Positions 15,758-21,591 of a stretch of 64,000 bases of DNA are shown here, one piece after another (position 1 is the first letter of the stretch; each line of letters begins with the position of its first letter). The notes under the pieces were generated by a model. It made no database searches, had not been told where the DNA came from, and was given only the letters and a program-made list of their open reading frames with translations. Origin of the DNA: Halobacteriovorax sp. GB3 (lineage in GTDB: Bacteria; Bdellovibrionota; Bacteriovoracia; Bacteriovoracales; Bacteriovoracaceae); NCBI RefSeq assembly GCF_028649655.1, contig NZ_JAQSLN010000003.1, positions 124,001 through 188,000 of the forward strand. Direction: 5' to 3'. The position numbers and the translations under genes were made by a program.

Positions 15758-15787
15758 GAACTAAAACGATTTAATTTGGGGATTTTT

Positions 15788-16999
15788 ATGTGTCGTCTAT
15801 TGTACGCCTTTTTCTTTCTCTACTTTGTTAGTTCTAGCTCTCACGCTTTTTGGTCTAAAGAAGTTTATGAGCATGCTGATCAATTTCCTATGCAATTACA
15901 GGGACAATTTGCAACAACTCTAACGGGGACCTGTATGGAGCCTAAAGGCCACTATAGAAGAATGGGTGGTCATGTTGAGAAAGTTGCTATTAAAAATTCA
16001 TTTCTTAAAGGTAAGAAGATGAATATTCGCCTAGCGAGTGTATATAAGAGACAAGATGTTATCGACAAAAGTGCTCCTTTTGTCTTTTTTATTCCAGGGG
16101 CCTTCAATAACCTTGATGACAATCAAGGAAGACACCTTATGGATCTCTTTCTACAAAAAGGCTATAACGTTGTGACAACTCCAAATCCATGGGGAACTGA
16201 CTTCATTAAATTAGGAGTTAAAGCACCAATAGGTAGTTTTGTTTACGAGGGTGAAGTTCTCTATGAGACGTTTTTAAATACTTTCAAAAAACTTAAGCGC
16301 GATGGCTACGCTGTTCCAAGCATACGATTAGTAGGTGTGAGTTATGGAAGTTTTCTCTCCGCCATGATCAGTGCTTTTAATGTAAAAGATAATTATCCTC
16401 TTCCTTTGAAAGACACGACGATCTTATCGCCTCCTTTCCATTTGGGAGAAACGATTTCTAGATTAGATTATTATGTTAATGAGTCTAGGCCTTATATAAA
16501 TGATAATTTGGTAAAGTCTCTGTATCGTTTGGTGTCCTTTTGTCGAAATGTTGACTATAGAGATCACGAAAAATTTTCTGAGAATAGGGCGATGAGTTTA
16601 GTTATTGGTGCTGGCTTTCATCGTGATCTCATTGCTTCTACAATACTTTACGATCGATTGAATAATCTTAATAAAATTCCTGGTCGTTTTTGGCGCACAC
16701 TTTCTAAAAAACATTTAAAGTGGAGAAAGAATTTAACGTTCAAAAAGTATTTTGATACTTACGCTAAAGAAGCTCGCATTGAGATGATGAGTAAAAAAGG
16801 TGATATTAACTATTGGTTAGATCTCGCTAGAGATGGGGGATACGACGATATTCGTATTTTAACTACTGATAACGACTTTTTAAATGAGCCAATATCAGCT
16901 TTTTCTCCAATCGAAAAAACCATCACGCTCCAATCTGGCGGTCACTACGGTTATCGTGGACTTTCATGGTATCGTGATTTAATCGATCTCTCATTTTAA
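15788..16999 (+). CDS. Exported alpha/beta-hydrolase
   Basis: 403 residues with an N-terminal signal peptide (about 1-20, ending SSSHA). The hydrolase fold is indicated by 'FVFFIPGAFNN' (oxyanion loop), 'LVGVSYGSFLSA' (nucleophile Ser in G-x-S-x-G), a late acidic 'LTTDNDFLNE' and the His in 'LQSGGHYGYRG'. Substrate unknown; a periplasmic or outer-surface esterase or lipase is plausible. The start is the ATG at 15788, with GGGGA five to ten bases upstream; an in-frame TTG at 15776 lies before that site and is unlikely. A hairpin follows before yaaA. Confidence 0.8.
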   Translation: MCRLLYAFFFLYFVSSSSHAFWSKEVYEHADQFPMQLQGQFATTLTGTCMEPKGHYRRMGGHVEKVAIKNSFLKGKKMNIRLASVYKRQDVIDKSAPFVFFIPGAFNNLDDNQGRHLMDLFLQKGYNVVTTPNPWGTDFIKLGVKAPIGSFVYEGEVLYETFLNTFKKLKRDGYAVPSIRLVGVSYGSFLSAMISAFNVKDNYPLPLKDTTILSPPFHLGETISRLDYYVNESRPYINDNLVKSLYRLVSFCRNVDYRDHEKFSENRAMSLVIGAGFHRDLIASTILYDRLNNLNKIPGRFWRTLSKKHLKWRKNLTFKKYFDTYAKEARIEMMSKKGDINYWLDLARDGGYDDIRILTTDNDFLNEPISAFSPIEKTITLQSGGHYGYRGLSWYRDLIDLSF

Positions 17000-17019
17000 A
17001 AATTAAATTCTTCGTGGTA

Positions 17020-17039
17020 GACTCCTTGAAAAAGGAGTC
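17020..17039 (+). promoter_or_regulatory. yaaA: Hairpin with GAAA tetraloop that buries the yaaA ribosome-binding site
   Basis: GACTCCTT-GAAA-AAGGAGTC: a perfect 8-bp stem closed by a GNRA tetraloop. The 3' arm contains AAGGAG (17032-17037), five bases before the yaaA ATG at 17043, so ribosome binding requires the stem to open. No T-run follows, so it is not a standard terminator of the preceding gene. Confidence 0.7.
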
Positions 17040-17042
17040 ACT

Positions 17043-17816
17043 ATGAAAATTATTGTTTCACCTGCTAAAAAGCTTGATTTTGATGAATTCGCTCCTGTGA
17101 GCAAATTCACCAGTCCAAAATATTTAGACGAGTCAAAAAGGCTTATCAATGTTCTTAGAAAATATACAGAATCTGATATCGCTAAACTGATGAAGCTTTC
17201 TGATAGCTTAGCTAAGCTTAACGTCGATCGTTACAAATCTTTCAATCCACCATTTGATCTAGAAAATGCTAAACAGGCCATGTATGCTTTTCAAGGTGAT
17301 ACTTACAAAGGTCTTCGAGCTGTTGATTTTTCAAAAGACGAGGCTAATTATGCTCAAAAGTCTCTTCGTATTCTCTCTGGTCTTTACGGCGTCCTTCGAC
17401 CGCTCGATCTTATTCAACCTTATCGCTTAGAGATGGGAACAAAACTACCTTGTGAAGGAAATAAGAACCTCTACGGTTTTTGGAAAGATACGCTAACTGA
17501 AGACCTCAATAAAGAGTTAAAAAAAGATAAAGATTGTGCTCTTATTAACCTCGCTTCTAAAGAGTACTTTAGTTCTCTCGACTTTTCTAAGTTAAGTGTA
17601 CCCGTTATCACATGCCACTTTATGGAAAAGAAAAATGATGGTTATAAAGTCGTTGGCCTCTTTGCTAAAAGAGCAAGGGGAATGATGAGTCGTTACATCA
17701 TTGAAAATCAAATTACAAAAGTATCTGGTCTTAAAGATTTCAACGAGCAGGGTTATCTCTATGATGCAAAGGCCTCTGATGATCTCAACTTAGTTTTCAA
17801 AAGAGATCAGTCTTAA
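17043..17816 (+). CDS. yaaA: Peroxide stress protein YaaA (UPF0246/DUF328)
   Basis: A full-length YaaA (257 residues, as in E. coli 258). The opening 'MKIIVSPAKKLDF' and the blocks 'AMYAFQGDTYKGL', 'RILSGLYGVLRPLDLIQPYRLEMGT', 'INLASKEYF' and 'KRARGMMSRYIIEN' are family signatures. In E. coli YaaA lowers intracellular free iron under hydrogen peroxide and so limits DNA damage; the same role here is inference. Translation is probably controlled by the hairpin over its ribosome site. An imperfect terminator follows. Confidence 0.95.
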   Translation: MKIIVSPAKKLDFDEFAPVSKFTSPKYLDESKRLINVLRKYTESDIAKLMKLSDSLAKLNVDRYKSFNPPFDLENAKQAMYAFQGDTYKGLRAVDFSKDEANYAQKSLRILSGLYGVLRPLDLIQPYRLEMGTKLPCEGNKNLYGFWKDTLTEDLNKELKKDKDCALINLASKEYFSSLDFSKLSVPVITCHFMEKKNDGYKVVGLFAKRARGMMSRYIIENQITKVSGLKDFNEQGYLYDAKASDDLNLVFKRDQS

Positions 17817-17829
17817 TTATTCTCAATTA

Positions 17830-17854
17830 AAATGGGCCTTTGAAAGGCCCATTT
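17830..17854 (+). terminator. Stem-loop after yaaA
   Basis: AAATGGGCC and GGCCCATTT pair around TTTGAAA, 13 bases past the yaaA stop. The T-run is short (ATTTGTCC), so termination may be weak. Confidence 0.65.
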
Positions 17855-18057: not shown

Positions 18058-21000
18058 GTGAAATCCAAATTGGTCTTACTATCTATAGGAACGATCTTGC
18101 TTTCATCTCCACTAGCTCAGGCTAGATGGCAAGATGATTTTATAGGGAATCCAAGTTTCAAATTAAATGAGGACTTAAATCTCTCTAATCTAACGAGAGA
18201 AGTTTCACGTTTAGAACGACTCTACAACAGCAAACAACAACTTACTGATCGTGAAGTTAAACGCTTAAACGAAGCCGTTAAATCGCTCTCTCTTATGGAG
18301 CGAGCTATCAGTCAAATCGAAACTGAAATAGCAAATCATGTAACTGAAATTTCAACTAATAGGGCGGAGATTGGAAAATTAAAAAATTCAAACAAGCAAT
18401 TTTCTACGGCGCTCAGTTCTAAAAAGGAAGAGATTACTAAGAAGAATAACCAAATTGAAGGTGTTAAAAAAGATATTAGTAATCTTCAGGCAAGCCTTAA
18501 AAAAGTACAAGCAGAGTGTCAGGCAGCACCAACTGATCAATGTACGCAAAAAATATCTAGCTTAAAACTAAATATTAAAAACAAAAGTACACTTAGAGAT
18601 CAATTGGTCGTTCAGTTAGCATCACTCATCAAAACCAGAGATAAGATTCAAAGTAACCTTACTAAAAATAGCGCTGTTATTAGTCGTCTTGAAAAGAGAA
18701 GTTCTTCCTTAGAGTTAGCGAATCAAAAGAAGGTTCAGCAAAATATAAAGAATAAAAAAGATCTCATTCCATTAAAGCGTGATGTTGAAAACCGCCACAG
18801 TATTGTTCAAAAAGCTGAGCGCGAATCAACTAGAGCAAAGAATACTTTAATTGGTGCACAAAAAGGACGTGATCAATATCGTCAAGACCTGATAAAGAGA
18901 GTGCTCATTGTGAACGATCAAGGGGCGCTAAGAGCTACTGAAGATGCTTATGATGATGGTTATGAACTTGCTTATCGTCTGGGTAAAAGTTACGGGGAAA
19001 GAGATGGCCGTGAGGATGGACTGAGCGAAGGGGCAAGTGACGCTAAGCGCAGAGATTATGATAAAGGTTATGCTGAGGGGCTAGTACTTGGAAAGGCCGA
19101 TGCACAAATTGAAGGAAGGCAAAATGGTGAGCGCGAGGGTCGAATTCAAGGAAATAAACTCGCTGCTATCGATCAAGCAAAAAAAGATGCCTTTGAAGCT
19201 GCTAAAATATCTGATGCAAAAGCAAAGGGACTTCGAGAAGGCTCAATCGCTGGTAATGAACTTGCGCTAAAAGAGGGAAATTTAGATGGTTCTGATCTTG
19301 GAATGAAAGAAGCGATCAAGGAGAAAGAGAGTCAGAAACTTAAAAAAGTCTCACTTCCTGGTCAATTCGCTGGAGCTTTTACAAAAGTTATTCCTAAGAT
19401 GCCTCTGAATTATAGAGGAAAGGCCTATAATCCTAATAAAGATTTTAAAAGAAAAGTGGTAGAGAAATCATATCGTGATGGTTATGAGTTCAAATATTCA
19501 GATGAGATTCAAAGATCTTATTATAAGAACGTTTCAAGCATCTATGAATCAGTCTATGAAGATGTGTATAATGAAAATTATCGATCAAAATTTGAACTAA
19601 CTTATCAAGAAGAAATTGCTAGAGGAAGATCGACTGGTCATAAAAAGGCCTACGGTGATCACTACACTGGGTACTATCAAAAGGCTTATAAAGATAAGTT
19701 GGAACACTATAGACGTTCACCGTTGAAAGATTCATCTGAATATCAACAGCAATATAAAGTAACTTTTAAAACTGCTTACGAAAAAGAGTACAATATTCTT
19801 AAGGATAAGGTTTTCGCTCAAGAGAAAAACCGTGTTTATCAATTAAAGTATCCTCTCTATCTTGAACAATCTCGAGTAAAGAGAAAAAATGATGTCCTTG
19901 ATATTTATCAAAAACATGCCGTTTTAAAGTATGAAAGTCATTCATTTGTCGATGGTGGGGTTAATAAAGTTGGGCAAAGAGATGGAATTGTCATGCCTAA
20001 TGAGGCCCTTTACATAAATATGACGATTTCAAACTTTGGGAAAGCTCCAGCGAAAAATGTTGAAGTTAAAGTTGGTTCAAATAAAACCTATACGATCAAT
20101 GAAATTCCTGGGGCATCTAGCGTTACGGTACAAGGCGCAGCAAAAGATATCGCACCCAACCGACTCGGGTCTTCTTTTGTTTCCAATGTGACGGTCCGTT
20201 ATCCGCTTACAGCTGAAACAAAAATCCAGGGTCTATATCACGAAAGAGGAGATATTCTAAATTCTAGTATTCGTGGTTCTTTCAATGTCCTTTATCCTTT
20301 AACAGTAGAAGATTTATCGATTAGTGGTGATCTAATTGTTGGTAAAGAAAATCAGGTTAAAGCTACTGTTTCAACGCGTGCCATTCGCTCGTACAAGGGG
20401 AAGATTGAAATCAAATTACAAGCTAGCTTAGATGGTATGGTTAGATCTTCTTTTAATGATCTTGAGTCCATCTCTAGGAGTGCTGCACTAAAGGGAGCTT
20501 CGATTTTGGTTTCCGATAAAAAAGATGCTTACCAAGATCTTTATCTTCAAGCAAAAATCTATAAAGATGGAATCCTACTAGGGCAAAATGAGCAACAGCT
20601 TAAAGTCGTGGCCAAAGAGGGATTCTCAATGAAAGATTCGGGAATTGTTGCACTCGTTAATGGAAGTGATAGAAATAATGACATTTATCATTTGATTGAA
20701 CAACTCGGTGGAGCTTCAAGAGTAGCTGTTTTAGATACTTCTCTTTCTGGTAATAAATCTGTTTTAGAAAAGGGTCTATCTAAGGCCAAGGTCTTTACAA
20801 ATAATAAAAATAGTCTTTCGTCACTCGATCAATTGATGTTAAAAGCAAAAGACTCGTCATTTGTGTATTTAAATGATGATAAAAACTTTAATGAATATTC
20901 TTCTAAGATGAGAGCGCTAAAGCATTCGAAGTCGCTTGGATTCAAGTATGGAAGTGAGAAAAAAGAAATTCAAACTATTCTATTAAACAATAGACTCAAT

Positions 21001-21591
21001 AGAGAGTTGAGTTCCTCGTCTGTTTTACTTGTTTCGGATTCTTCTGATATTGTTGATCTTAAGACATTATCTTCACTCTTTTCTAAAACGAATGATGAGT
21101 TGATTGAAGGGATTCGCAAGATCAGTGATGAAAGCTACTTTCATACAAATGATCAAATACAAAAAAGAATTCAGGTTGCAATGATTCGCTCTATTCATGA
21201 AAACCATAATATCAACCAAGCTTATCTTGCTAGTGGAAGTGTCGTATCAAGAGATAAGGATATTGCAAGAATTGTTCAAAGAGATAAGAATCTATTTCAC
21301 AATAAACTTGGAAAAATAGTAAAAAAGAGCGTTAAAGTTGCCAATATTGGACTTTATCTTTTTGCCTACAACTATTACTATGTAATGAAGAGTGCGACTT
21401 CTTCTTGGAAGCCAACTTCGAGAGATTTTACAATGGCAATTACAAATAGACTTTACGGTGCGCTATTTATTGATGGAGCTCTTGAAGACGTTAAAGATGG
21501 TCACAAAAAGCTTAAATCGCATTCACGTTCACTTTACAATAAAGTTGATAGTAACCAAGGTTTACATGCACCTTTTGACTTCTCTCTTTAA
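18058..21591 (+). CDS. Giant exported protein with coiled coil, Gly ladder and Tyr ladder
   Basis: Unknown family, 1177 residues. The start is GTG at 18058, with GAGGGGG five bases upstream and a signal peptide (KSKLVLLSIGTILLSSPLAQA) right after; the frame is open from 17986 but lacks these. In order: coiled coil (about 25-290), a segment with Gly every fourth residue such as 'YGERDGREDGLSEG' and 'EGRQNGEREGRIQG' (about 297-415), a Tyr-rich segment with Tyr every fourth residue such as 'YESVYEDVYNENY' (about 457-615), a beta-rich part resembling CARDB/Ig-like adhesion domains ('MTISNFGKAPAKNVEVKVG', about 630-850), and a mixed C-terminal part with a hydrophobic segment at about 1094-1112. 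Likely an envelope or surface structural protein; role unknown. Confidence 0.75.
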   Translation: MKSKLVLLSIGTILLSSPLAQARWQDDFIGNPSFKLNEDLNLSNLTREVSRLERLYNSKQQLTDREVKRLNEAVKSLSLMERAISQIETEIANHVTEISTNRAEIGKLKNSNKQFSTALSSKKEEITKKNNQIEGVKKDISNLQASLKKVQAECQAAPTDQCTQKISSLKLNIKNKSTLRDQLVVQLASLIKTRDKIQSNLTKNSAVISRLEKRSSSLELANQKKVQQNIKNKKDLIPLKRDVENRHSIVQKAERESTRAKNTLIGAQKGRDQYRQDLIKRVLIVNDQGALRATEDAYDDGYELAYRLGKSYGERDGREDGLSEGASDAKRRDYDKGYAEGLVLGKADAQIEGRQNGEREGRIQGNKLAAIDQAKKDAFEAAKISDAKAKGLREGSIAGNELALKEGNLDGSDLGMKEAIKEKESQKLKKVSLPGQFAGAFTKVIPKMPLNYRGKAYNPNKDFKRKVVEKSYRDGYEFKYSDEIQRSYYKNVSSIYESVYEDVYNENYRSKFELTYQEEIARGRSTGHKKAYGDHYTGYYQKAYKDKLEHYRRSPLKDSSEYQQQYKVTFKTAYEKEYNILKDKVFAQEKNRVYQLKYPLYLEQSRVKRKNDVLDIYQKHAVLKYESHSFVDGGVNKVGQRDGIVMPNEALYINMTISNFGKAPAKNVEVKVGSNKTYTINEIPGASSVTVQGAAKDIAPNRLGSSFVSNVTVRYPLTAETKIQGLYHERGDILNSSIRGSFNVLYPLTVEDLSISGDLIVGKENQVKATVSTRAIRSYKGKIEIKLQASLDGMVRSSFNDLESISRSAALKGASILVSDKKDAYQDLYLQAKIYKDGILLGQNEQQLKVVAKEGFSMKDSGIVALVNGSDRNNDIYHLIEQLGGASRVAVLDTSLSGNKSVLEKGLSKAKVFTNNKNSLSSLDQLMLKAKDSSFVYLNDDKNFNEYSSKMRALKHSKSLGFKYGSEKKEIQTILLNNRLNRELSSSSVLLVSDSSDIVDLKTLSSLFSKTNDELIEGIRKISDESYFHTNDQIQKRIQVAMIRSIHENHNINQAYLASGSVVSRDKDIARIVQRDKNLFHNKLGKIVKKSVKVANIGLYLFAYNYYYVMKSATSSWKPTSRDFTMAITNRLYGALFIDGALEDVKDGHKKLKSHSRSLYNKVDSNQGLHAPFDFSL

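What the first reader, a model, noticed from the sequence alone, without database searches (positions are those of the whole stretch)
17020..17042. Perfect hairpin hides the yaaA ribosome-binding site
An 8-bp stem with GAAA tetraloop has AAGGAG in its 3' arm five bases before the ATG. A heat- or stress-opened hairpin before a peroxide-stress gene would be a compact RNA switch (thermometer or protein-gated).
Basis: partly seen in the sequence, partly recalled or inferred. Interest (0 to 1): 0.6.

Follow-up and report, generated by a model that had tools for sequence, protein, structure and literature searches.

The report
Hairpin blocking translation of read-through mRNA
A very strong hairpin does hide the ribosome-binding site of the stress gene yaaA, but it is far too stable to be a temperature switch; it more likely stops ribosomes starting on transcripts that run in from the gene before, while yaaA's own transcript seems to begin inside the hairpin and stays free, and similar hairpins sit before other closely spaced genes of this bacterium.

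Summary
The hairpin is real: GACTCCTT-GAAA-AAGGAGTC at 17020-17039, SD in the 3' arm. It is larger than reported: 17011-17018 pairs with 17040-17047, giving 16 bp with one bulged A, -21.5 kcal/mol, z -5.25, covering SD and AUG. SD opening costs 15.5 kcal/mol, rank 4 of 1285 called genes on the contig. It is not a thermometer: the SD stays paired at 5-80 C. It is not a conserved yaaA element: none of 34 family orthologues has this stem. Two leads point elsewhere. (1) The best promoter-like site nearby (TTTAAA-17-TGG-TAGACT) predicts a start at 17030, in the loop 2 nt before the SD, so yaaA's own mRNA would lack the 5' arm. (2) SD-occluding hairpins form a genome-wide class in tandem gaps of 45-150 nt: 31/190, about 3 expected; 1/109 at divergent genes; 1/288 in operons. 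Most lack a U-tract and centre on the SD. Best reading: a translational insulator against read-through RNA, with the promoter inside the hairpin. Start sites and function are predicted, not measured.

The parts
17020..17039 (+). inner hairpin, 8-bp perfect stem GACTCCTT/AAGGAGTC with GAAA loop (17028-17031)
   Evidence: sequence
17011..17047 (+). whole predicted hairpin: outer helix UUCGUGGU (17011-17018) / ACUAUGAA (17040-17047), bulged A17019, plus inner stem; -21.5 kcal/mol
   Evidence: z -5.25
17032..17037 (+). Shine-Dalgarno AAGGAG, wholly inside the 3' arm
   Evidence: sequence; opening cost 15.5 kcal/mol
17043..17816 (+). yaaA (PF03883 peroxide stress protein YaaA), 257 aa
16995..17000 (+). 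predicted -35 TTTAAA (overlaps the upstream stop codon)
   Evidence: prediction with E. coli-type weights only
17015..17023 (+). predicted extended -10 TGG-TAGACT; overlaps the 5' arm; predicted start about 17030, in the loop
   Evidence: best promoter-like site in 16901-17060; 0 of 288 operon-internal genes reach the score at that position
15776..16999 (+). upstream tandem gene, 407 aa, no Pfam match; stop 43 nt before yaaA; no terminator-like site found in the gap
   Evidence: 58% identical homologue in same-genus genome, followed there by a terminator
17830..17854 (+). hairpin after yaaA (AAATGGGCCTTT/AAAGGCCCATTT), probable transcript end

Best explanation
The hairpin is a translational read-through insulator with the promoter built into it. 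RNA that runs in from the gene 43 nt upstream carries both arms, folds into the 16-bp hairpin and cannot be translated for yaaA. yaaA's own promoter (-35 at 16995-17000, extended -10 at 17015-17023) starts RNA at about 17030, in the loop, so the correct mRNA lacks the 5' arm and has a free SD two bases from its 5' end. Shown: the hairpin, its rarity, and the genome-wide class of SD-centred, mostly U-tract-free hairpins confined to tandem non-operon gene gaps. Inferred: the promoter and start site, the presence of read-through RNA, and the block of translation.
For: SD and AUG are buried, too stable to open thermally. The best promoter-like site within 160 bp predicts a start in the loop; 0/288 operon-internal genes reach that score at the same distance, and 1% reach it anywhere from -50 to -10. 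SD-occluding hairpins (>=8 kcal/mol): tandem gaps of 45-150 nt 23/121 (2.5 by shuffling) on C3 and 8/69 (0.75) on C1, which was examined after the pattern was seen on C3; divergent gaps 1/109; overlapping or <20 nt tandem pairs 1/288 (Fisher p 7e-6 and 2e-12). Non-U-tract hairpins in tandem gaps peak with the 3' arm at -15 to -5 (19 seen, about 3.3 by shuffling), whereas in divergent gaps they do not. -10-like boxes that start RNA inside these hairpins occur in 36% against 13% at operon-internal genes (0 of 300 resamples). Orthologous starts keep a hairpin while the sequence changes: pyk in the same-genus genome with ATATCC/GGATAT changed to GTATCC/GGATAC and TATAAT in the loop; the 1160179 gene with the same TAAAAT and a different stem, and the 380049 gene in another genus with a different 13-kcal stem. 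In the same-genus genome that lacks yaaA, the upstream gene ends in a U-tract terminator that this genome does not have.
Against: yaaA's gap is 43 nt, just below the 45-150 range of the enrichment; for gaps of 35-45 nt the excess on C3 is not significant (2 of 11 against 1.15). Internal -10 boxes are no commoner than in tandem genes without a hairpin. SD-hairpin genes are not short of separate terminators (4/40 against 15/150). Several tested orthologues lack the hairpin. Gene starts come from a simple caller, the classes and thresholds were chosen while looking at C3, and no RNA data exist here.
Confidence: 0.5

Rival explanations
1. A regulated switch: yaaA mRNA starts upstream, carries the whole hairpin and is off until a protein, small RNA or helicase opens it under stress.
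For: SD and AUG are both locked; YaaA is a peroxide-stress protein that in E. coli is induced by OxyR and shrinks the iron pool (PMC8115020).
Against: No yaaA-specific conservation; no Rfam family in the window; the best promoter-like site lies inside the hairpin, not before it; the same kind of hairpin precedes many unrelated genes.
Confidence: 0.15
2. An RNA thermometer that melts on warming.
For: Stem-loop over the SD.
Against: SD closed from 5 to 80 C; P(all SD open) about 1e-11 at 37 C and 3e-4 at 80 C with the full leader. No fourU pairing.
Confidence: 0.02
3. The 3' end of the upstream gene: a terminator-like or end-protecting hairpin that overlaps the next RBS because the gap is short.
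For: It lies 11-20 nt after the upstream stop; the same-genus homologue has a terminator there; five of the 43 SD hairpins do carry a U-tract.
Against: No U-tract after the yaaA stem (ACTATGAAAA); non-U hairpins peak at the SD rather than being spread through the gap.
Confidence: 0.17
4. A DNA palindrome bound by a regulator (MerR-like format 7+4+7) that overlaps the RBS by accident.
For: ACTCCTT-N4-AAGGAGT has MerR-type spacing (recalled); a MerR-type gene at C3:957760 carries a longer palindrome of that kind.
Against: No second copies above control; each hairpin of the class has its own sequence; SD overlap recurs.
Confidence: 0.1
5. Neutral chance complementarity.
For: Not conserved among yaaA genes.
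Against: z -5.25; no shuffle at >=15 kcal/mol; class enrichment replicated on a second contig.
Confidence: 0.06

Closest known systems
Phage T4 lysozyme gene e and similar two-transcript genes (from memory; no paper found in the library)
   Same: A long transcript hides the RBS in a hairpin; a short one starting within the hairpin is translatable
   Different: There it separates early from late phage transcripts; here it would separate own from neighbour transcripts, in a chromosome, at many genes; start site only predicted
IS10/IS50-type protection of transposase from outside transcription (from memory)
   Same: Read-through RNA folds so that the start region is closed, own RNA is open
   Different: No mobile element here; YaaA is a stress protein of the chromosome
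Type I toxin mRNAs with an inert primary transcript (described in PMC7858274)
   Same: Upstream anti-SD sequence sequesters the SD
   Different: There the same transcript is opened later, for example by processing (recalled); no toxin here
RNA thermometers (ROSE, fourU)
   Same: Hairpin over the SD
   Different: Far too stable, no fourU, not conserved

Membership tests
RNA thermometer | SD becomes accessible within the growth temperature range | tested here: not met
   closed 5-80 C
RNA thermometer | known family (ROSE, fourU, cspA type) | tested here: not met
   no Rfam family at gathering threshold; the SD pairs with CUCCUU, not four U
Two-transcript RBS occlusion (T4 gene e / IS10 type) | inverted repeat that includes the SD | tested here: met
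Two-transcript RBS occlusion (T4 gene e / IS10 type) | own promoter starts RNA downstream of the 5' arm | tested here: inconclusive
   best predicted promoter starts at 17030; not measured
Two-transcript RBS occlusion (T4 gene e / IS10 type) | long transcript from upstream crosses the hairpin and is not translated | not testable with these tools
   needs RNA and reporter data; no terminator seen in the gap
Intrinsic terminator | U-tract after the stem | tested here: not met
   sequence after 17039 is ACTATGAAAATT
Type I toxin-antitoxin mRNA | small toxic peptide with antisense RNA | tested here: not met
   257-aa YaaA protein; antisense RNA not tested
Riboswitch | conserved aptamer | tested here: not met
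   no Rfam match; stem not conserved in orthologues

The most novel reading that the evidence does not exclude
In this lineage (the closest named relative is a Halobacteriovoraceae genome) many tandem genes with their own short-leader promoter carry individually evolved hairpins that bury the SD only in read-through RNA: a genome-wide system of translational insulation at gene boundaries. E. coli K-12 regions show none (0 of 28 tandem gaps).
Probability: 0.4. Interest if true: 0.65.

Novelty: new variant of a known kind. Interest (0 to 1): 0.48.

Why it matters
If true, closely packed genes in this group are kept separate at translation and not only at transcription, and predictions that read RBS strength from sequence would be wrong for them unless the start site is known. 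It also warns that an SD-hiding hairpin in a genome sequence need not be a switch: the working mRNA may never contain the other arm. It is directly testable by 5'-end mapping.

Tried and rejected
Thermometer: rejected on melting calculation. Conserved yaaA switch: rejected, 34 orthologues compared (in some minus-strand or start choices were wrong and were redone in 13 and 70). Repeat family or operator copies: none above control. Rfam: none. Translational coupling from the upstream stop: judged unlikely, since a ribosome at the 16997-16999 stop should reach only about 17010, just short of the hairpin (inference). The first null (shuffling the SD too) was too easy and was replaced by SD-fixed shuffles. 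The family-wide pattern count was discarded because its control does not keep SD frequency. Hairpin genes having fewer separate terminators: no difference. Internal -10 boxes enriched over other tandem genes: no. Literature searches for this arrangement found nothing directly on it.

Full report
What is there. The stem GACTCCTT/AAGGAGTC with a GAAA loop is at 17020-17039, with AAGGAG five bases before the yaaA ATG. Folding shows that it continues: UUCGUGGU (17011-17018) pairs with ACUAUGAA (17040-17047) around one bulged A, so SD and AUG are both inside a 16-bp helix of -21.5 kcal/mol, 5.25 sd below shuffles. The gene is a full YaaA. Its start is fixed by the conserved N-terminal SPAKK motif a few residues after the start codon of its orthologues.

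Is it unusual. With a simple gene caller on the 1.48-Mb contig (1285 genes), yaaA ranks 4th for SD opening cost and 6th for AUG opening cost. Keeping the SD and shuffling only the upstream bases, 4 of 737 genes reach 15 kcal/mol and no shuffle set does. The palindrome is not a repeat or a multi-copy operator.

Is it a thermometer or a yaaA switch. Computed SD accessibility is negligible from 5 to 80 C, with the full leader or the inner stem alone. yaaA is patchy in the family (47 of 129 genomes, absent from the one same-genus genome searched). None of 34 orthologous leaders has this stem. A few have some other SD occlusion (L027 10.7, L039 8.6, L034 8.1 kcal/mol), and 6 of the 35 including our own are below 0.05 by shuffling, where about 1.8 are expected. 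So there is no yaaA-specific conserved switch.

What the context says. In the same-genus genome the homologues of the genes on either side of yaaA are neighbours with no yaaA between, and the upstream one ends in a typical U-tract terminator, GGACCTAGATTAGGTCCTTTTTT, directly after its stop codon. In the present genome the 43-nt gap has no terminator-like site and holds the SD hairpin instead. Whether yaaA was gained here or lost there is open.

A class of such hairpins. Strong SD occlusion (>=8 kcal/mol) is concentrated in tandem gaps of 45-150 nt: 23/121 on C3 and 8/69 on C1, against 2.5 and 0.75 by shuffling. It is near absent at divergent genes (1/109) and in operons (1/288) (Fisher tests). 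C1 was fetched after the pattern had been seen on C3 and serves as the replicate. Of 43 listed cases (tandem 35-150 nt, >=7 kcal/mol) five have a U-tract. Hairpins without a U-tract peak with the 3' arm at the SD, while U-tract hairpins lie mostly further up. In nine E. coli K-12 stretches (450 kb) with the same caller none of 28 tandem gaps shows it; that control is small. yaaA itself, with a 43-nt gap, falls just outside the enriched range.

Promoters inside hairpins. -10 boxes that would start RNA within these hairpins occur in 36% of cases, against 13% at operon-internal genes, and about as often as in tandem genes without hairpins. That is what short leaders would give: -10-like boxes peak 33-42 nt before first genes. 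For yaaA the single best promoter-like site in 160 bp is TTTAAA-17-TGG-TAGACT, which would start RNA at 17030, in the loop; none of 288 operon-internal genes scores as high at that distance. The scoring weights are E. coli-type and were written in the script from memory.

Conservation of the class. For four hairpin genes orthologues were read. pyk keeps the hairpin in the same genus with an A-T to G-C compensatory change and a TATAAT in the loop, and another genus has an unrelated 13-bp stem there. The 1160179 gene keeps TAAAAT and a differing stem in the same genus, and the 380049 gene has a different 13-kcal stem in another genus. The 750025 gene shows no clear counterpart, and several other orthologues lack a hairpin. 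This suggests recurrent selection but does not prove it.

Mechanism. The simplest reading that fits all this is insulation: read-through RNA folds shut, own RNA starts inside the hairpin and is open. Shown are the hairpin, its rarity and the class with its tandem-gap bias. Predicted are the promoter and start. Assumed are read-through transcription and the block of translation. The known parallels (T4 gene e, IS10) are from memory; the inert primary transcripts of type I toxins are described in PMC7858274.

Noticed in passing
contig C3 of the genome (loci L051-L124): 1230779+, 393170-, 1028913-: Terminators whose 3' arm is the next gene's SD and whose U-tract is the SD-to-ATG spacer (e.g. AGGAGGCTTTTTTATG): terminator and RBS fused.
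   Followed up: partly
contig C3:957760 (minus strand), in L098: MerR-type regulator gene preceded by ACTCCGTAC-CATA-GTACGGAGT between TTGACT and TATATT, with the ATG right after the -10: looks like an autoregulated, nearly leaderless MerR promoter.
   Followed up: no
window 15776-16999 and 18058-21591: Both neighbours of yaaA have no Pfam match; homologues exist in part of the family (24 of 125 genomes for the upstream one) and are adjacent without yaaA in the same-genus genome.
   Followed up: partly
contig C3:1160179 (minus strand), L108/L109: Second gene with almost the same inner hairpin as yaaA (CTCCTTGAAATAAGGAG) directly after a TAAAAT box.
   Followed up: yes
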